DNA of 6,645 nucleotides. Source: Gammaproteobacteria bacterium. GTDB taxonomy: Bacteria; Pseudomonadota; Gammaproteobacteria; DSM-16500. A model generated the notes under the pieces. It was not told where the DNA came from and did no database searches. It was given only the letters and a program-made list of their open reading frames with translations. The position numbers and the translations under genes were made by a program. This document shows positions 2 through 6,645 of this stretch, piece by piece (positions within the stretch are counted from its first letter, which is position 1; every line of letters begins with the position of its first letter). The stretch spans positions 1-6,645 of the forward strand of contig SCTP01000348.1 of the NCBI GenBank assembly GCA_004322325.1, read 5' to 3'.

Positions 2-355
2 AGCACCACAACGCTACCTAACAATGCTACGAAACTATTTGAAGTAGTTAAATTATTAAAAGCGGAAATAAAAAGATTAAAAATACAATCTGCTTTTATT
101 AAAGACAAATTAAAAGCAGATGAAATAAGCTTTAATTCTTATAATGAGGATTTAGCTAAAATTTCAGCGCTGCATCATAAAAAGATATGTTTGTTTTTTG
201 GGCCAAAAATTGGCCATGAAATAAACGCTTACCATGCGCTAGAAAGTTTTTTAAGGAAAATGCCTCGAGAAGTAGGGGAGCATATATTTAGTTATATTGA
301 TGATGAACAAGATTATCAAGATACCTATTTAAAAAATAGAAAATGTAAACCATAG
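2..355 (+). CDS. C-terminal part of an unrecognised protein (5' end outside window)
   Basis: This frame is open from the left window edge to a TAG stop at 353-355, giving 117 residues. There is no plausible start near its beginning: the only in-frame ATG lies late, at about residue 87, so the gene very likely begins upstream of the window. I do not recognise the family. The first half (roughly residues 11-42) is a lysine-rich, leucine/isoleucine-spaced stretch that looks helical and perhaps coiled coil. It is followed by a segment around KICLFFGPKIGHEINAYHAL and an acidic-to-basic tail ending in NRKCKP. No signal peptide or membrane segment is visible in this part. It is convergent with the cyclase operon, only 23 bases from the end of cyclase A, so it is probably functionally unrelated. 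That it is coding rests on the uninterrupted frame in AT-rich DNA and its protein-like composition. Confidence 0.7.
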   Translation, partial: STTTLPNNATKLFEVVKLLKAEIKRLKIQSAFIKDKLKADEISFNSYNEDLAKISALHHKKICLFFGPKIGHEINAYHALESFLRKMPREVGEHIFSYIDDEQDYQDTYLKNRKCKP

Positions 356-378: not shown

Positions 379-1467
379 TTAACCCTTAACTGAAATCAAC
401 TTATACAATTGAATCGTCTTCTCACCCACCGTGACTGAGTCAGCTTTTTCAATTTGAAAATCATCTTTAATAAATTGAAAGGTTGATTCGTCAATCAACA
501 CAGTATTTGGCATGTCATGCGTTAATCCTTCAATTTTTAGCGCATTTTCCACTACTTCGCCAATCACAGAATAACTTAAAAAATTCTCCGATATCGTATG
601 CCCGACAATCGCCTCCCCTGTCGTAATGCTAATCCCAATTGACGTGTCAAAATTCACTTTTTCTTTCATCGCATCATTAAAATCCTTTATGGCAGCCACC
701 ATCTCTAAAGCACATAATGCTGCATTTCGCTTGTCATCCAAAGATGAAGTGGGTGCACCAAAAGTAGCAATTAATCCATCACCTAATATCTTATAAATAT
801 TGCCATGATTTTTTATCACAATATCGACCATCACAGAAAAATATTTATTCAAATAATCAACTAATATTTTGGGGTCAATTGTTTCGGATATGGTAGTAAA
901 ATGATGAATATCGACAAATAAAACAGAGATAACGCGATTTTCAGCCAGGAGTGAAGAGGTATCAGTAGAGTCATTCATGATTTGATCAATAATATCTTTC
1001 GGAACATATTTTTGAAAAAGATCAATGGTTTTTTCTTGTTTATCTATAATTTCTTTTAACTCATTAAGTAATACATAATTGCTTTGCTCTTGCCGATAGA
1101 TTTTAATCCCAATGTCAATAATTTGTTTTAACTCATCTTCTTCCCAAGGTTTAGTAATATAACGTAATACCAAACCATTATTGATTGATTTAATAATCGC
1201 ATTAATATCGCTAAATCCCGTCAGAATCATGCGTACTGACTTAGAATGCTTAGGAATCACTGCTTCTAAGAATTGAACACCCGTAATATCTGGCATGCGT
1301 TGATCGGTGATAATTAATTCAATGTCATGCTTTTCTAAAACTTTAATGGCCTCAGTCGCTGAAATAGCAGTAAAAATAGTATAATAACGACGAAATGCCG
1401 CAGCGAAAGCGTCTAAGTTCGATTGTTCATCATCAACATATAATATCACTGGCTTTTGTGGCTGCAT
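379..1467 (-). CDS. Cyclase A: response regulator with class III nucleotide cyclase domain lacking the catalytic Asn/Arg
   Basis: This 362-residue cytoplasmic protein has a receiver domain (about 6-125), a helical linker with a KYVPK motif (about 126-170) and a class III adenylate/guanylate cyclase domain (about 176-358). The receiver looks functional: acidic pair D12/D13, phosphoacceptor D55 in TDQRMP, T83, and K106 in a KPW motif. In the cyclase domain both metal-binding aspartates are present (D186 in FVDIHHF, D230 in KILGDG), as is the adenine-contacting lysine K226. The transition-state pair is missing: where the family has VNxAxR, this protein has VENALK, putting E307 for Asn and K311 for Arg. 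S300 sits at the second purine-contact position. It should be unable to cyclise ATP as a homodimer but could supply the metal site to a partner. It is the last gene of the operon, starting two bases after HK-A ends, and is the likely phosphorylation target of HK-A. Domain calls are secure; partnership with cyclase B is inferred. Confidence 0.93.
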   Translation of the reverse strand: MQPQKPVILYVDDEQSNLDAFAAAFRRYYTIFTAISATEAIKVLEKHDIELIITDQRMPDITGVQFLEAVIPKHSKSVRMILTGFSDINAIIKSINNGLVLRYITKPWEEDELKQIIDIGIKIYRQEQSNYVLLNELKEIIDKQEKTIDLFQKYVPKDIIDQIMNDSTDTSSLLAENRVISVLFVDIHHFTTISETIDPKILVDYLNKYFSVMVDIVIKNHGNIYKILGDGLIATFGAPTSSLDDKRNAALCALEMVAAIKDFNDAMKEKVNFDTSIGISITTGEAIVGHTISENFLSYSVIGEVVENALKIEGLTHDMPNTVLIDESTFQFIKDDFQIEKADSVTVGEKTIQLYKLISVKG

Positions 1468-1469
1468 AA

Positions 1470-3737
1470 TTACTCCTGGTGGATGGGAAGAGTAATAATA
1501 AACTCAGAACCCTTGCCCACCTCACTTTTTACTTCAATATGTCCTTTAAGATCTGAAATAATACCAAATGAAATAGATAAGCCTAATCCTAATCCTTTGC
1601 CCACATCTTTGGTAGTGAAAAATGGTTCAAATATTTTAGCTTTACTCTCCTCACTCATGCCAGTACCTGTATCTTTGAAGCTAACAATGACATGATTACC
1701 TTTTTTCTCTGTTTTAATGGTAATATCACCTTTATCAGGTGTGGCATCAATGGCATTAGACAGCATATTCATAAAGACTTGATTCAATTTTCCAGGAATG
1801 CACTCAATTTCAGGAATGTCGCTGTAATTTTTAATAATATTAATCTTGCCGGCACATTTATCTTTTAACAAAATAAGTGTCGAATCAATTCCTTCAAGAA
1901 TATTAAATTTCATCATGGTTTCTTCAGATGCGCCTGAAAATGTACGCAAACTGGTAATAATTGAAGCTGTTCGGTGTGTACCTTCTGCCATTCCTTTTAA
2001 TAGTTTATGCGTCTCTTCAATAGTGTAATCCAAATCAAGCGATTTTTTTAAGGCTTCAATTTCTTGTAATTGGTTAAGAAGATTTTCACTGGATTTTATC
2101 TCGGCATATTTGTTCATCACATTCGTCATATCGGCTATATTTCGTTTAAGAGAAGTAACGGTTGATTTGACAAAATTAATGGGATTATTTATTTCATGCG
2201 CAATCCCTGCGGTGAGCACCCCAATGGAAGCAAAACGATCGTTTTTTTGCAGATTTTCACTTAATTTAACGTTTTCCGAGATATCATCAATGCGAATCGC
2301 TAAGCCTTGTTCTTTGCCTAATAAATGCAATGGGTAAGTAACGACGCTGAAATAGAGAGTGGTATCGCTGGTGGTATGAATCACTCTATCAATTGTAACA
2401 GCCGTGTTTAATTTATTTTGATAATTCTTTAAATAGGGAAAAAAGTCAAATATGGATTTTCCTTTAACTTCCTGAATCGATTTGCCAATGGATTTTTCTG
2501 CTAATGAGTTTAAGTGAGTAATCAAGAAATCTTTATTAATAATTAATAGAATGGAAGGCATCGTGTTGATAATATCGCTTAATAAAGATTCAGCTTCTTG
2601 CAATCTTCTAGAAAACAAATTAGCTTTATCTAATTCATTGGAAACTTGATTTAATAACAATTTCTGCTGACGACCATATTCTTCAATAATAGATAATGTT
2701 TTATTCGTTTCTTTTTCTACTGATGTCAATTCATCAGAGCCTTCTTCATTGACGCGTAATGAAAATTTCTTTTTTGATTCAATATTAATAATATTTTTGC
2801 TTAATTTTTCCAGTCGGTTAATCACTAAAATTCGTAATAGATAAGAGAGAATAATAATAAACAGAATGCCAAAGCCGAAAAATAGCAGGTTAAAATTATA
2901 AATAGTATGAGTACCTGCTTCATATACTGTTCGAGGGATGACGGCTTGCAAGATGGCGATAGGTTTATCATTAATGTCTTTTAATAAAAGATAACCCAAT
3001 ATTTCATTTTTCTTTTGTCCAATAACAGCGATAGGCTTATTTTGATCTATTAATTGATTAAAGATAGTATTTAATACTGGTTGATGACGAATGTCATTTA
3101 AGCGGTAGAGTGTTAAATGCAAGTGAGTCACTTCTTCTACCCTTGATAAGGAAGCAGGAGAAAAATAGCGGGCAAAAATTAATGCGCCGCGAGAAGGGCC
3201 TGAATAATCCGTTTTTAAAATAGGATGAGAAGAAACTAAATAAATACCGGCCGGGATAGAAATAAGTCCTTTTATTTTCATTTTTAAATCAGGTTGATGG
3301 ACCAATTTTCCATTAGGTGCTAAATAATCATATAATCCGCTGGGTAAGGGTACTTCCATGGTTCTATCAGCGGAGACGGCTCTAGCAAATACGGTTTTTC
3401 CTGTTGCATCGAAATACAGCATCATATCGACGTTGGAAGCAGAAAAAACGGTGATTTGAAGATTAGCGTTAATATAATCTTGAATGCTTTTTGGATTTTT
3501 ATCGACAATAAAATTGTAAGTCTCATCCCAAACCGCTGTATCAGTATCAAATGTTTCTACTTCATCTACCATACGCTCAATTGTTTTGTCGACTTGATCC
3601 ATTTTACGAATGACTTGCTTATTTTCAAGTTGCAGATAACTGTTTAGCAAAATACGTTGTGCGCCAAAGTAAATGGCGGCTACCATTAAACCCCAGACGA
3701 TGACAATGATCAGTGTGACTTTCGTTTGTAGTCTCAT
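1470..3737 (-). CDS. HK-A: CHASE4-HAMP-PAS sensor histidine kinase with intact H-box
   Basis: This 755-residue inner-membrane hybrid-free sensor kinase has TM1 (about 8-25), a periplasmic CHASE4-type domain (about 40-280, with the VWDETYNF and GPSRGALIFAR signatures), TM2 (about 284-302), HAMP (about 303-355), a short coiled coil, PAS (about 385-490), a HisKA dimerisation domain (about 500-600) and a HATPase_c domain (about 645-752). The phosphoacceptor is H514 in AGIAHEINNP, which also carries an ExxN phosphatase-type motif (E515, N518). The ATP site has N661 in the N-box, DTGTG (689-693), an EPFFTTK F-box and GLGLGL (715-720). The H-box resembles the NtrB-like HPK4 class. It has no receiver of its own, so the receiver of cyclase A just downstream is the natural phosphoryl target. 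The ATG overlaps the HK-B stop. The ligand is unknown; CHASE4 domains are sensory but not tied to a single signal. Confidence 0.94.
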   Translation of the reverse strand: MRLQTKVTLIIVIVWGLMVAAIYFGAQRILLNSYLQLENKQVIRKMDQVDKTIERMVDEVETFDTDTAVWDETYNFIVDKNPKSIQDYINANLQITVFSASNVDMMLYFDATGKTVFARAVSADRTMEVPLPSGLYDYLAPNGKLVHQPDLKMKIKGLISIPAGIYLVSSHPILKTDYSGPSRGALIFARYFSPASLSRVEEVTHLHLTLYRLNDIRHQPVLNTIFNQLIDQNKPIAVIGQKKNEILGYLLLKDINDKPIAILQAVIPRTVYEAGTHTIYNFNLLFFGFGILFIIILSYLLRILVINRLEKLSKNIINIESKKKFSLRVNEEGSDELTSVEKETNKTLSIIEEYGRQQKLLLNQVSNELDKANLFSRRLQEAESLLSDIINTMPSILLIINKDFLITHLNSLAEKSIGKSIQEVKGKSIFDFFPYLKNYQNKLNTAVTIDRVIHTTSDTTLYFSVVTYPLHLLGKEQGLAIRIDDISENVKLSENLQKNDRFASIGVLTAGIAHEINNPINFVKSTVTSLKRNIADMTNVMNKYAEIKSSENLLNQLQEIEALKKSLDLDYTIEETHKLLKGMAEGTHRTASIITSLRTFSGASEETMMKFNILEGIDSTLILLKDKCAGKINIIKNYSDIPEIECIPGKLNQVFMNMLSNAIDATPDKGDITIKTEKKGNHVIVSFKDTGTGMSEESKAKIFEPFFTTKDVGKGLGLGLSISFGIISDLKGHIEVKSEVGKGSEFIITLPIHQE
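1473..1477 (-). promoter_or_regulatory. Ribosome binding site of cyclase A
   Basis: AGGAG on the minus strand lies five bases before the ATG at 1467-1465. It falls in the last codons of HK-A, directly before its TAA (1472-1470), so ribosomes finishing HK-A can re-initiate on cyclase A. This supports the chosen start and an equal-dose, coupled expression of the two proteins. Confidence 0.75.
3734..3737 (-). other. ATGA stop/start overlap between HK-B and HK-A
   Basis: The HK-A start (ATG, 3737-3735) and the HK-B stop (TGA, 3736-3734) share bases in the classic ATGA arrangement. This implies translational coupling and roughly matched amounts of the two kinases, as expected if they form a heterodimer. 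Confidence 0.9.
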
Positions 3738-5974
3738 GGCAGCTTACCTCTTGGTAAGGTAATAATAAATTCCGTCCCCTTACCGGCCTCGCTCTTAAAT
3801 TGGATATCACCATGCAATTCTTTAATAACACTGAAAGAGATGGATAACCCTAATCCTGAGCCACTCTCGGCCTTTTTGGTAGAAAAGAAAGGTTGAAATA
3901 TTTTACTTTGATGCTCTTTGCTAATCCCAGTACCATTGTCTTTGATGCTAATGGAAACGTCACGCTCATCTTCAGTTGTTTTTATTTTAATGGCGCCTTG
4001 ATGCGGAATCGCGTCAATTGCATTTGAAATAATATTCATAAAAACTTGGTTTAACTTGCCGGGGATGCAATTAATTTCAGACGAATGAGTATATTCTTTA
4101 GTAATATCAATTCGATTAATACATTTATATTTTAATAAATTAACGGCAGAATCAATACCTTCTTTGATGTCATAATTTTTCTCGAGATTTTCATCTAATC
4201 GGACAAATGTTTTTAGATTACGCACAATCTCATCGGTCTGATTAGCGGCTGATTTTATTTCATCTAATAGGCGATTCGTTTTTTCAATATCATAATCAAT
4301 ATTATTTACTTTTCCATGTAATTTTTTTATCTCATCCCATTGATCATTAGAAGTAATAGCGGCATATTTATTCAGCGTATTGATTAATTCAGATATGTTG
4401 CTGGAAATGGTAGGTAAGATAGATTCAATAAAGCTAATAGGATTGACAATTTCATTGGCTATACCAGCTGTCAAGATACCAATGGAAGATAATTTGTCTG
4501 TTTGTCTTAATTCATCTTCCAGTTTTACTTTTTCAGAAATATTATCGATTCTTAATGCTAATCCTCGGCCTTTTTCTGGGTGGCTAAGGGGATAAATCAC
4601 CACGCTAAAATAGAGGATTTTATCCTGAATAGGACAAGCTATTTTGTCAATGCTATTGATGGTTTTATTCTGAAATGATGTTTTTAACAGTTCTTCGTAG
4701 TTTTTAATGTAAGGGAAGAATTCGAATAGCGATTTTCCTGTCACCTCAGTCACTGGTTTTTCTATGTATTTTTCTGCTAAGGAGTTCAAGTGAGAAATAG
4801 TTAAATCAGCATTGATAATGACTAACATAGAAGGCATAAAATTAATCGTATCACTTAAGAGCGATTCTGTTTCCTGTAGTTTTTTTGAAAATTTATTAAC
4901 GTTATCTAATTCATCCGATACTTTCTTTAATAATATTTTTTGTTCTTCACTATATTTTTCAATTGCGGATAACATTTTATTGGTTTCTTTTTCCACTGAC
5001 GTGAGCTCATCGGATCCTTCTTCATTTACTCTTAAAGAAAATTGTTTTTTGGAGCCAATATCGATAATATTTTTATTTAATTTTTCTAAGCGAGAAATCA
5101 GTAGAGATCGTAATAAGTAAGATAATACGAAGACAAAGACCACACCGAATCCAAAAAAGACATAGTTAAAATAATACATGGTATTAATACCAGACTGATA
5201 GATATCGCGCGGCATCGCTGCTTGGATGATAGCGATGGGCTGATCATTAATATCTCTTAATAAAAGGTATCCATATAAAATTTTCTTATTTTTCCCTACT
5301 TTCACAAGAGGTCCATTTTTTAATTCATTAATATTGGAAGTAGCGTTGATGCGATACATGGTTAAATCAAGATGGGTGGTATCTGCTATTTTTTTCAAAG
5401 TTTCATTTGTGAATCGTTTAGCAAGAATTTGTGCACCTCGTGATGGTCCGGTGCTATCGCTTTTCACAATCGAATGGGAAGCAACTAATAAAATACCAGA
5501 GGGAATAGAGACGAAGCCTTGAAAGCTGCTATTGACATGGGGTTGATACACTAATTTTCCTTTAGGTTGTAAATAATCGGATAATCCTTCTGGAAGAGGA
5601 ATTATTTTTTCTCGAGTGGGATCCACGGCGAGCCCATAAAAATATTGACCGGTTGGGGTGAAATAAAGCATCACATCGATATCAGCTTGACCTAAGGTGC
5701 TGACAGTGGCAGTGCCATTAATATATTCCTGGTTTTTATCTGCCATGAATTGATAAGCATCATCAAAGATAGACCAGAAGGCATCCATTTTGCTCAGCTC
5801 ACTTAACATGCGATCAATGGTTTCCTTGACTTCGATAATATTATTCATTCCATTTTGATGTTCTAATTGTAAATAGCTCTGGGTTAATAATCTTTTGCCT
5901 TCGAAATAAGTCGTAGCTAATAGCAAGCCCCAGACGAGAAGAATAATTAACGAAACCTTGCTTCTTAGCTTCAT
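3734..5974 (-). CDS. HK-B: CHASE4-HAMP-PAS sensor kinase paralogue lacking the phosphoacceptor histidine
   Basis: This 746-residue paralogue matches HK-A along its whole length: TM1 (about 8-24), periplasmic CHASE4-like domain (about 40-265, with GPSRGAQILAKRF), TM2 (about 271-288), HAMP (about 290-342), coiled coil, PAS (about 375-480), HisKA-like region (about 492-590) and HATPase_c (about 635-742). The H-box reads AGIANEIVNP, with N507 exactly where HK-A has H514 (codon AAT at 4456-4454), so it cannot autophosphorylate at the usual site. The ATP-binding domain looks intact: N651 in the N-box, DNGTG (679-683), QPFFSTK and GSGLGL (705-710). The ExxN phosphatase-type motif is kept (E508, N511). 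The CHASE4 segment lacks the WDETY form seen in HK-A and is more divergent. Likely roles are trans-phosphorylating H514 of HK-A in a heterodimer, or a phosphatase or signal-modulating subunit. The frame is intact over 746 codons, so it is not a pseudogene. Confidence 0.92.
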   Translation of the reverse strand: MKLRSKVSLIILLVWGLLLATTYFEGKRLLTQSYLQLEHQNGMNNIIEVKETIDRMLSELSKMDAFWSIFDDAYQFMADKNQEYINGTATVSTLGQADIDVMLYFTPTGQYFYGLAVDPTREKIIPLPEGLSDYLQPKGKLVYQPHVNSSFQGFVSIPSGILLVASHSIVKSDSTGPSRGAQILAKRFTNETLKKIADTTHLDLTMYRINATSNINELKNGPLVKVGKNKKILYGYLLLRDINDQPIAIIQAAMPRDIYQSGINTMYYFNYVFFGFGVVFVFVLSYLLRSLLISRLEKLNKNIIDIGSKKQFSLRVNEEGSDELTSVEKETNKMLSAIEKYSEEQKILLKKVSDELDNVNKFSKKLQETESLLSDTINFMPSMLVIINADLTISHLNSLAEKYIEKPVTEVTGKSLFEFFPYIKNYEELLKTSFQNKTINSIDKIACPIQDKILYFSVVIYPLSHPEKGRGLALRIDNISEKVKLEDELRQTDKLSSIGILTAGIANEIVNPISFIESILPTISSNISELINTLNKYAAITSNDQWDEIKKLHGKVNNIDYDIEKTNRLLDEIKSAANQTDEIVRNLKTFVRLDENLEKNYDIKEGIDSAVNLLKYKCINRIDITKEYTHSSEINCIPGKLNQVFMNIISNAIDAIPHQGAIKIKTTEDERDVSISIKDNGTGISKEHQSKIFQPFFSTKKAESGSGLGLSISFSVIKELHGDIQFKSEAGKGTEFIITLPRGKLP
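3743..3758 (-). promoter_or_regulatory. Hairpin covering the HK-A ribosome binding site
   Basis: Read on the minus strand, CTTACC-AAGA-GGTAAG forms a perfect 6-bp stem with a 4-base loop. The HK-A Shine-Dalgarno sequence (AGAGGT, 3751-3746) spans the loop and the 3' arm, about nine bases before the ATG. The hairpin lies within the last codons of HK-B, so a translating ribosome would melt it. That would make HK-A translation depend on HK-B translation. The pairing is visible; the regulatory effect is inferred. Confidence 0.45.
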
Positions 5975-5982
5975 ATTATTTA

Positions 5983-5988
5983 TTCCTT
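5983..5988 (-). promoter_or_regulatory. Ribosome binding site of HK-B
   Basis: AAGGAA on the minus strand lies eight bases before the ATG at 5974-5972, in the short gap after the cyclase B stop. It supports the chosen start, which places a membrane segment right after a short basic N-terminus, as in HK-A. Confidence 0.65.
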
Positions 5989-5989
5989 A

Positions 5990-6001
5990 AAACAGCTGTT
6001 T
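5990..6001. repeat. 12-bp perfect palindrome at the cyclase B / HK-B junction
   Basis: AAACAGCTGTTT is a perfect palindrome and continues for two more matching pairs on each side after one mismatch. It overlaps the cyclase B stop codon and sits just upstream of the HK-B ribosome binding site. It has no loop, so it resembles a dimeric protein-binding site more than an RNA hairpin. A chance occurrence in AT-rich DNA is possible. Confidence 0.35.
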
Positions 6002-6645
6002 AAATTCTTTTTTTAAGCACCTTATATAAATTAATTGAATTTTCTTTCCCACGTACTTTTGTTTCACCAATGGATTCTGTCACGACACATTCTTGCACTA
6101 ACGGATAAATAGAATCGGTAATTAAGACGGTATTACGTATTCCTTTGGTGAGGTCGACGATGCGAGAGGCTGTGTTAACGGTATCGCCAATCGCGGTATA
6201 AGTAATATATTGTTTAGAGCCGATATTACCGATGACGGTTTCGCCTGAATGAATGCCTACGCCTAACTTGATTTCGAAGCCTATTTTTTCGCGATTCTCT
6301 GCATTGAACGTTTCTAATTGTTCCATCATGGATAAGGCACAAAAGACGGAATTTTTTTGATTCTCAATCGAAGAGATGGGTGCGCCAAAAATAGCGAGAA
6401 TACTGCCGCCGACGAATTTATCGACTATTCCTTTATGTTCTTCAATACATTTTGCCATGAGTGAAAAATAACTATTGATATAATCGTGAACTTGTTGCGG
6501 GTTGGATTTGTCATAGAGTTGACTGATATTATGAATAGTCGCAAACAAAATAGAAATAATGCGCAGTTCCCCATCAAATAATGTTTCCACATTGTGATGA
6601 GCGACCAGTGATTGATCGACGATATTTTTTGGCACGTACTTACTA
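6000..6645 (-). CDS. Cyclase B: class III nucleotide cyclase lacking both metal aspartates (5' end outside window)
   Basis: The frame stays open through the right window edge. A GTG at 6635-6633 could be read as a start, but the residues around it (SKYVPKNIVDQ) align with the internal linker KYVPKDIIDQ of cyclase A, so this is a mid-protein Val and the gene continues upstream, possibly into a receiver domain. Numbering from that Val, the cyclase domain spans about 24-208. Both metal-binding aspartates are replaced: T33 in LFATIHN (codon ACT, 6539-6537) and G77 in KFVGGS (codon GGC, 6407-6405). The other catalytic residues remain: adenine-contacting K73, T147 in TYTAIGD, N154 and R158 in VNTASR. 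The K/Thr pair suggests ATP rather than GTP. Alone it should be inactive, but it has what cyclase A lacks. It is followed after 25 bases by HK-B. Sequence calls are firm; the function as an obligate partner is inferred. Confidence 0.9.
   Translation of the reverse strand, partial: SKYVPKNIVDQSLVAHHNVETLFDGELRIISILFATIHNISQLYDKSNPQQVHDYINSYFSLMAKCIEEHKGIVDKFVGGSILAIFGAPISSIENQKNSVFCALSMMEQLETFNAENREKIGFEIKLGVGIHSGETVIGNIGSKQYITYTAIGDTVNTASRIVDLTKGIRNTVLITDSIYPLVQECVVTESIGETKVRGKENSINLYKVLKKRI

What the first reader, a model, noticed from the sequence alone, without database searches (positions are those of the whole stretch)
379..6645. Two class III cyclases in one operon with complementary loss of catalytic residues
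Cyclase A keeps metal aspartates D186 and D230 but has E307 and K311 in place of the catalytic Asn and Arg. Cyclase B has Thr and Gly in place of both metal aspartates but keeps Lys, Thr, Asn and Arg. Class III active sites form at the dimer interface, with metal aspartates from one chain and the purine-binding and Asn/Arg residues from the other. An A:B heterodimer would therefore have exactly one complete site and one dead site, the arrangement known from the C1 and C2 halves of mammalian adenylyl cyclases. Most bacterial class III cyclases are homodimers with two sites, so a split pair made by two separate, operon-linked bacterial proteins would be unusual. The dead site could serve as an allosteric pocket, as the forskolin site does.
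Basis: partly seen in the sequence, partly recalled or inferred. Interest (0 to 1): 0.93.

Follow-up and report, generated by a model that had tools for sequence, protein, structure and literature searches.

The report
Split bacterial adenylyl cyclase pair
Two genes in one bacterial operon each encode a cyclase that keeps only one half of the catalytic residues, the same complementary loss recurs in relatives from another genome and from metagenomes, and the two proteins are therefore predicted to make cyclic AMP only when paired, most likely under control of the sensor kinases encoded between them.

Summary
Cyclase A keeps both metal aspartates (D186, D230) but has Glu/Lys for the catalytic Asn/Arg; cyclase B has Thr/Gly for the aspartates but keeps Lys, Thr, Asn, Arg. 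It is not a one-off: A lies in a 17-row clade and B in a 14-row clade (100/100 each). A-type keep the metal half and lack the Asn+Arg pair; B-type keep Lys, Thr, Asn, Arg and lack at least the second Asp. The order B-kinase-A recurs in another genome, and A-, B- and kinase-type clusters share contig lengths twice more. In that genome's family, 15 of 16 single-copy relatives are complete. Best reading: duplication and complementary decay of a homodimeric response-regulator cyclase gave an obligate A:B heterodimer with one site, like C1/C2 of mammalian adenylyl cyclase but as two proteins, probably phosphorylation-gated. New here: one of the two kinases lacks its phosphoacceptor His but keeps its ATP boxes, so the kinases may be split too. 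Dimerisation and activity are untested, B's N-terminus lies off the contig, and some A-type contigs show no linked B.

The parts
379..1467 (-). Cyclase A: receiver domain (phosphoacceptor D55 at 1303-1305) plus class III cyclase domain with the metal half-site: D186 at 910-912, D230 at 778-780; Asn/Arg replaced by E307 (547-549) and K311 (535-537)
6000..6644 (-). Cyclase B: class III cyclase domain, N-terminus cut by the contig end; T36 (6537-6539) and G80 (6405-6407) replace the metal Asp; K76 (6417-6419), T150 (6195-6197), N157 (6174-6176), R161 (6162-6164) and K200 (6045-6047) kept; a receiver domain is inferred from homologues
1470..3737 (-). HK2: CHASE4 - PAS - HisKA (below its cut-off) - HATPase histidine kinase, phosphoacceptor H514 (2196-2198) present, ATP-binding boxes intact
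3734..5974 (-). HK1: CHASE4 - PAS (below its cut-off) - HATPase kinase, 53% identical to HK2; Asn507 (4454-4456) in place of the phosphoacceptor His, ATP-binding N, G1 and G2 boxes intact

Best explanation
A and B carry complementary halves of one class III active site, and they most likely work as an obligate A:B heterodimer with a single catalytic site, predicted to make cAMP when their receiver domains are phosphorylated by the CHASE4 histidine kinases encoded between them. Shown from sequence: the complementary loss, its retention across two clades, the operon, A's intact receiver, and receivers in B's homologues. Inferred: A would supply the two metal ions and bind the triphosphate, while B would supply the adenine-selecting Lys/Thr and the transition-state Asn/Arg; the reciprocal site would be dead. 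Inferred evolution: an ordinary homodimeric response-regulator cyclase next to one kinase was duplicated, and each copy lost the opposite half-site, so output came to need both proteins. Most speculative step: the kinase was then duplicated too, and HK1 (no His, ATP domain intact) may work only as a heterodimer with HK2.
For: (1) Residues in the window. (2) A-type, 16 distinct rows: D1 16/16, D2 15/16, the Asn+Arg pair 0/16. B-type, 13 distinct rows: Lys, Thr, Asn, Arg 13/13 each, D2 0/13, D1 2/13. (3) Each type is one clade at 100/100, and A+B together is not rejected as one clade (AU p 0.38). (4) Same order B-kinase-A, with one extra open frame after B, in L067 from another genome; A, B and kinase clusters have equal contig length at 11664 and again at 85819. 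(5) In 143 genomes of L067's family, 17 have a match at E 1e-70: only L067's genome has two; of the 16 single copies 15 keep D, D, N and R and one is interrupted by stops. (6) The A profile has one matched stretch, in the C1 half, for AC5, AC8 and sAC; the B profile matches their C2 halves best; control profile A4 has two stretches in each. (7) The receiver Asp and supporting residues are invariant in the 16 rows of A1 and nearly so in A2.
Against: P0019 (A-type) has His for D2; P0130 and P0132 (B-type) keep D1. AC9 is matched best in its C1 half by both profiles. Only 2 of 15 A-type clusters have a B-type cluster of equal contig length; P0002, P0006, P0010 and P0013 have contigs of 23-32 kb with no listed B-type of equal length, so A without a linked B may exist. 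The operon was seen in none of the 35 other genomes of the order, so a recently acquired or misbinned contig is possible.
Confidence: 0.74

Rival explanations
1. A and B are pseudo-cyclases: both have lost catalysis and serve as phosphorylation-dependent binding or scaffold proteins.
For: Degenerate class III copies do occur in the family: P0032 and P0048, whose clusters share contig length 12109, have both lost D2 and Arg, which cannot complement each other.
Against: Plain decay would not spare exactly opposite half-sites. In B-type Lys, Thr, Asn, Arg are 13/13, and in A-type D1/D2 are 16/16 and 15/16, at about 50% sequence identity.
Confidence: 0.13
2. A and/or B pair with other, complete cyclases of the cell and tune them (dominant-negative or modulator subunits) rather than with each other.
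For: The genome holds four further Guanylate_cyc places. In the SAR324 locus L107 a complete receiver-cyclase is encoded near one that has lost both metal Asp.
Against: A and B share an operon, and the same receiver-cyclase architecture in homologues. Of the six cyclase places in the genome only the window's two reach E 1e-45 with the A profile. A modulator needs only one type, but L067 also holds both.
Confidence: 0.08
3. A or B alone is active through substitute residues (for example other metal ligands or another way to hold the transition state).
For: Some class III cyclases tolerate substitutions at Asn/Arg (general knowledge, recalled, not tested here).
Against: No consistent substitute is seen: A-type shows D (9/16), E, H, N, G at the Asn column and K, R, Q, T, L, E, S at the Arg column; B-type shows G or S at D2.
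Confidence: 0.05

Closest known systems
Mammalian membrane adenylyl cyclases (C1/C2 pseudoheterodimer) and soluble AC
   Same: One half binds the phosphates and metals, the other the adenine; one catalytic and one degenerate site. PMC8815786 section 10 (read) describes tmAC in these terms, with forskolin at the degenerate site. Residue names recalled.
   Different: There both halves are in one polypeptide. Here they are two separate bacterial proteins, linked to receiver domains and histidine kinases.
Soluble guanylyl cyclase alpha/beta
   Same: Heterodimer of separate, homologous subunits (start of abstract of PMC3591389).
   Different: Makes cGMP in response to NO; here Lys/Thr at the purine pocket point to ATP.
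Chytrid NeoR/RGC1 heterodimeric rhodopsin cyclases
   Same: Obligate heterodimer of separately encoded, clustered cyclase genes (PMC8815786, passages and section 10).
Single-copy receiver-cyclase plus MASE1 kinase (L185, family of G402)
   Same: Same receiver-cyclase architecture and an adjacent kinase; related in sequence.
   Different: One copy with all catalytic residues, hence presumably an ordinary homodimer.
Bacterial class III cyclases of known structure (CyaC, CyaB, Cya2)
   Same: Same fold: among the closest solved structures of both models.
   Different: Those are homodimers with two equivalent sites (general knowledge, recalled).

Membership tests
Class III nucleotidyl cyclases | Guanylate_cyc catalytic domain (PF00211) above the curated cut-off | tested here: met
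   A 63 bits, B 85 bits, cut-off 21.9; structural models closest to CyaB, CyaC, Cya2
Homodimeric bacterial class III cyclase | One chain carries all of D, D, Lys/Thr, Asn, Arg | tested here: not met
   A lacks Asn/Arg, B lacks both Asp
C1/C2-type heterodimeric class III cyclase | Metal Asp on one chain; purine, Asn and Arg residues on the other | tested here: met
   Residues and clade-wide conservation; C1/C2 profile preference with control, AC9 excepted
C1/C2-type heterodimeric class III cyclase | Physical heterodimer with activity needing both chains | not testable with these tools
   No complex prediction or assay available
C1/C2-type heterodimeric class III cyclase | Degenerate second site works as an allosteric pocket | not tested
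   No docking or binding data
Two-component response regulator with cyclase output | Receiver domain with phosphorylatable Asp | tested here: met
   A: PF00072 64.8 bits, D55 present and invariant in A1. For B only in homologues; B's own N-terminus is off the contig
Two-component response regulator with cyclase output | Sensor kinase encoded alongside | tested here: met
   HK1 and HK2 between B and A; one kinase in L067. That they phosphorylate A and B is not tested
Adenylyl (not guanylyl) cyclase | Lys and Thr/Asp at the purine pocket of the Asn/Arg chain (criterion recalled) | tested here: met
   K76 and T150 in B, 13/13 in B-type; substrate itself not assayed

The most novel reading that the evidence does not exclude
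This is a bacterial invention, independent of animals, of the C1/C2 adenylyl cyclase: two separate response regulators that share one active site, so that cAMP is made only when both are present and phosphorylated. In the window the kinase pair is split the same way, with HK1 giving the ATP-binding domain and HK2 the histidine. The operon would then be a two-layer AND gate built twice from complementary pseudo-enzymes.
Probability: 0.3. Interest if true: 0.9.

Novelty: new variant of a known kind. Interest (0 to 1): 0.82.

Why it matters
[quoted passage not shown] This operon looks like the step before fusion: a duplicated homodimer whose copies have lost opposite half-sites and would now depend on each other. 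Complete single-copy relatives still exist, so the path from two-site homodimer to one-site heterodimer can be tested directly. It would also add a form of two-component output in which one enzymatic site is shared by two response regulators. In the listings of my nine library searches I saw no bacterial cyclase split between two separate proteins by complementary residue loss; I opened few of the listed papers, and the library lacks most subscription journals.

Tried and rejected
Plasmid origin: no tblastn match of A at E 1e-30 in 72,556 plasmid records. Viral contigs: one match, to query residues 8-124 (receiver) only. Relatives: in 93 other genomes the best match to B was 33% identical over most of its length (42% over residues 13-209 in another) and none of the fetched loci shows either half-site loss. 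Class sample: 0 of 368 other genomes reached E 1e-70. Order: 7 of 35 other genomes had a match at E 1e-45; all eight such places keep both Asp and Asn, one with His for Arg. Repeating L067's family search at order level returned 143 genomes and the same places. P0015 was first counted with A-type but falls outside the clade and was dropped. Structure models: A mean pLDDT 82, B 89; monomers only, so the interface was not tested. Downstream cAMP receptor: two cNMP-binding proteins in the genome, one FNR-like by its Cys cluster (recalled), one a short protein of 161 residues; no clear CRP, but the genome is about 93% complete.

The survey PMC2447327 could not be used: the held text is short and of my five terms only 'pseudo' occurred.

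Full report
WHAT IS THERE. The window is a complete 6645-bp contig (G000:C343) of a 2.03-Mb, 353-contig genome. Four genes lie on the minus strand in the order B, HK1, HK2, A, with gaps of 25 bp (B-HK1) and 2 bp (HK2-A), a 4-bp overlap (HK1-HK2), and purine-rich stretches before the three visible starts. A is a receiver plus cyclase; B is a cyclase whose N-terminus is cut off by the contig end; HK1 and HK2 are CHASE4 kinases with PAS and HATPase domains.

RESIDUES. A has D186, K226, D230, S300, E307, K311; B has T36, K76, G80, T150, N157, R161 in the 214-residue frame. These columns were fixed by aligning A and B with 237 homologues and agree with profile alignments to the solved cyclase Cya2 and the phytochrome-cyclase chimera 6fht. 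The roles of the residues are recalled knowledge of class III cyclases.

A-TYPE CLADE. A search of about 5.8 billion proteins gave 516 relatives at E 1e-30; the best 120 were listed and examined. The closest (P0002-P0014, P0016, P0019, with L067's copy and A itself) form one clade of 17 rows at 100/100. With the near-copy P0005 removed, 16 distinct rows keep D1 16/16 and D2 15/16 (P0019 has His). Asn is kept in 1/16 (P0010), Arg in 2/16 (P0002, P0011), both together in 0/16. Outside this clade, P0052, P0054 and P0065 also lack both Asn and Arg while keeping both Asp, and P0015 has Asn but not Arg; these are scattered cases.

B-TYPE CLADE. A search with B gave 166 proteins at E 1e-15, of which 120 were listed. 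P0122-P0132 and P0135, L067's copy and B form one clade of 14 rows at 100/100. With the near-copy P0127 removed, 13 distinct rows keep Lys, Thr, Asn and Arg 13/13 each; D2 is lost in 13/13 and D1 in 11/13 (P0130 and P0132 keep it). The homologues P0122, P0125, P0131 and L067's copy carry a receiver domain, and the other full-length ones align with them there.

DIFFERENTIAL CONSERVATION. I compared 36 other relatives chosen by me from the hit lists and loci; eight long-branch or odd rows, P0015 and two near-copies were left out beforehand, and four of the 36 (P0028, P0032, P0048, P0052) are themselves partly degenerate. Of 40 cyclase-domain columns at least 90% conserved among them, those lost in A-type (kept in under half of rows) but kept in all B-type rows are N290, G292, N307 and R311 (A numbering). 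Those kept in most A-type rows but lost in B-type are D186, R188, F190, V203, D230 and E313. One column (E298) is lost in both. The C-terminal RGK motif is 13/13 in B-type, whereas in A-type its Arg is 0/16 and its Lys 8/16.

C1/C2 LIKENESS. The A profile has one matched stretch, in the C1 half, in AC5 (67 bits), AC8 (77 bits) and sAC (58 bits). The B profile matches best the C2 half of AC5 (102 bits), AC8 (99 bits) and sAC (68 bits), with a second stretch in AC5 and AC8. For AC9 both match C1 best. A control profile of 16 ordinary relatives has two stretches in AC5, AC8, AC9 and sAC, the best in C1 for the first three and in C2 for sAC. Which residues are C1 and which C2 is recalled.

CO-OCCURRENCE. 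One scan of 84,980 species genomes with the A profile found 492 relatives and kept the best 80 loci. Of these, only L067 (title: Legionella sp. 2055-AUS-E MAG) shows the complementary pair: B-type (N, K, G, T, N, R), an open frame whose tested part has no Pfam match, a CHASE4 kinase with His, then A-type (D, K, D, T, E, Q). Several kept loci end close to the match, so a partner could be cut off. In the protein database, A-, B- and kinase-type clusters have equal contig lengths at 11664 (P0004, P0125, P0246) and 85819 (P0014, P0131, P0254). A B-type and a kinase share 9094 and 20209; an A-type and kinase(s) share 23408 and 32114. Equal length is taken to mean the same contig; the contigs were not read. 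Thus 2 of 15 A-type clusters show B, and four A-type contigs of 23-32 kb (P0002, P0006, P0010, P0013) show none among those listed, so solitary A-type genes are not excluded.

ORIGIN. In 143 genomes of L067's family, 17 have a match at E 1e-70; L067's own genome has two, 16 have one. Fifteen of these 16 keep D, D, N and R, and one (L180) is interrupted by stops. The one that I read in context (L185) overlaps by 4 bp a MASE1 kinase with an AHEINNP His box. In the tree, A-type and B-type lie together with three complete rows (96/76, not a starred branch), and one A+B clade is not rejected (p 0.38). This fits one duplication followed by complementary loss. None of the 35 other genomes of the window's order has the operon, so it was probably acquired, or the contig is misbinned.

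KINASES. HK1 and HK2 are 53% identical and fall in sister clades of four (100/100 and 100/99). HK2-type keep His in 4/4. HK1-type keep it in P0241 and P0247 but have Asn in the window and Ala in P0242. The ATP-binding boxes are kept in these eight, apart from changes in P0247's N box. P0242 shares its longest contig length (23408) with an HK2-type kinase (P0249) and an A-type cyclase (P0002), so the two-kinase form with one His-less member is seen twice. Two kinases elsewhere in the tree, P0254 and P0262, have Tyr instead; P0254 has the contig length of the P0014/P0131 pair, and P0131's receiver looks degenerate. That lineage speaks against phosphorylation control as a general rule. Trans-phosphorylation between HK1 and HK2 is an inference.

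MECHANISM AND LIMITS. The simplest account is an obligate A:B heterodimer with one composite site. Lys and Thr in B suggest ATP as substrate. Receiver residues suggest phosphorylation control. The structure models are single chains and confirm only the fold. No assay or complex exists, the signal sensed by CHASE4 is unknown, and the cAMP receptor was not identified.

LITERATURE. In the listings of nine searches of open-access full text I saw no bacterial class III cyclase split across two proteins by complementary residue loss. Of PMC8815786 I saw passages and read section 10; of PMC9433096, PMC13001267 and PMC2447327 passages only; of all others the search listing with the start of the abstract.

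Noticed in passing
window 4454-4456 (HK1): HK1 has Asn instead of the phosphoacceptor His while its ATP-binding boxes are intact; a related HK1-type kinase (P0242) has Ala there. Possible split kinase pair with HK2.
   Followed up: partly
L107 3-1175 and 4941-5981: SAR324 locus: a complete receiver-cyclase and a second receiver-cyclase with Gly and Ala for the two metal Asp, on either side of a kinase and two proteins that look by eye like periplasmic binding proteins: a one-sided case of the same theme.
   Followed up: partly
P0032 and P0048 (equal contig length 12109): Two receiver-cyclases that have both lost D2 and Arg, so they could not complement each other.
   Followed up: no
L067 6829-7596: An open frame between B and the kinase; its part 7048-7593 has no Pfam match. 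By eye it could be an outer-membrane protein; a guess.
   Followed up: partly
window 2-355: Open frame of 117 aa on the plus strand running off the contig, no Pfam match; no link to the operon seen.
   Followed up: no
P0052, P0054, P0065: Receiver-cyclases outside the A-type set that keep both metal Asp but have lost both Asn and Arg; they might have B-like partners.
   Followed up: no
P0254 (equal contig length 85819 with P0014 and P0131): The kinase that goes with this A/B pair has Tyr in place of the phosphoacceptor His, and the B-type partner's receiver looks degenerate: a lineage where phosphorylation control may be lost.
   Followed up: no
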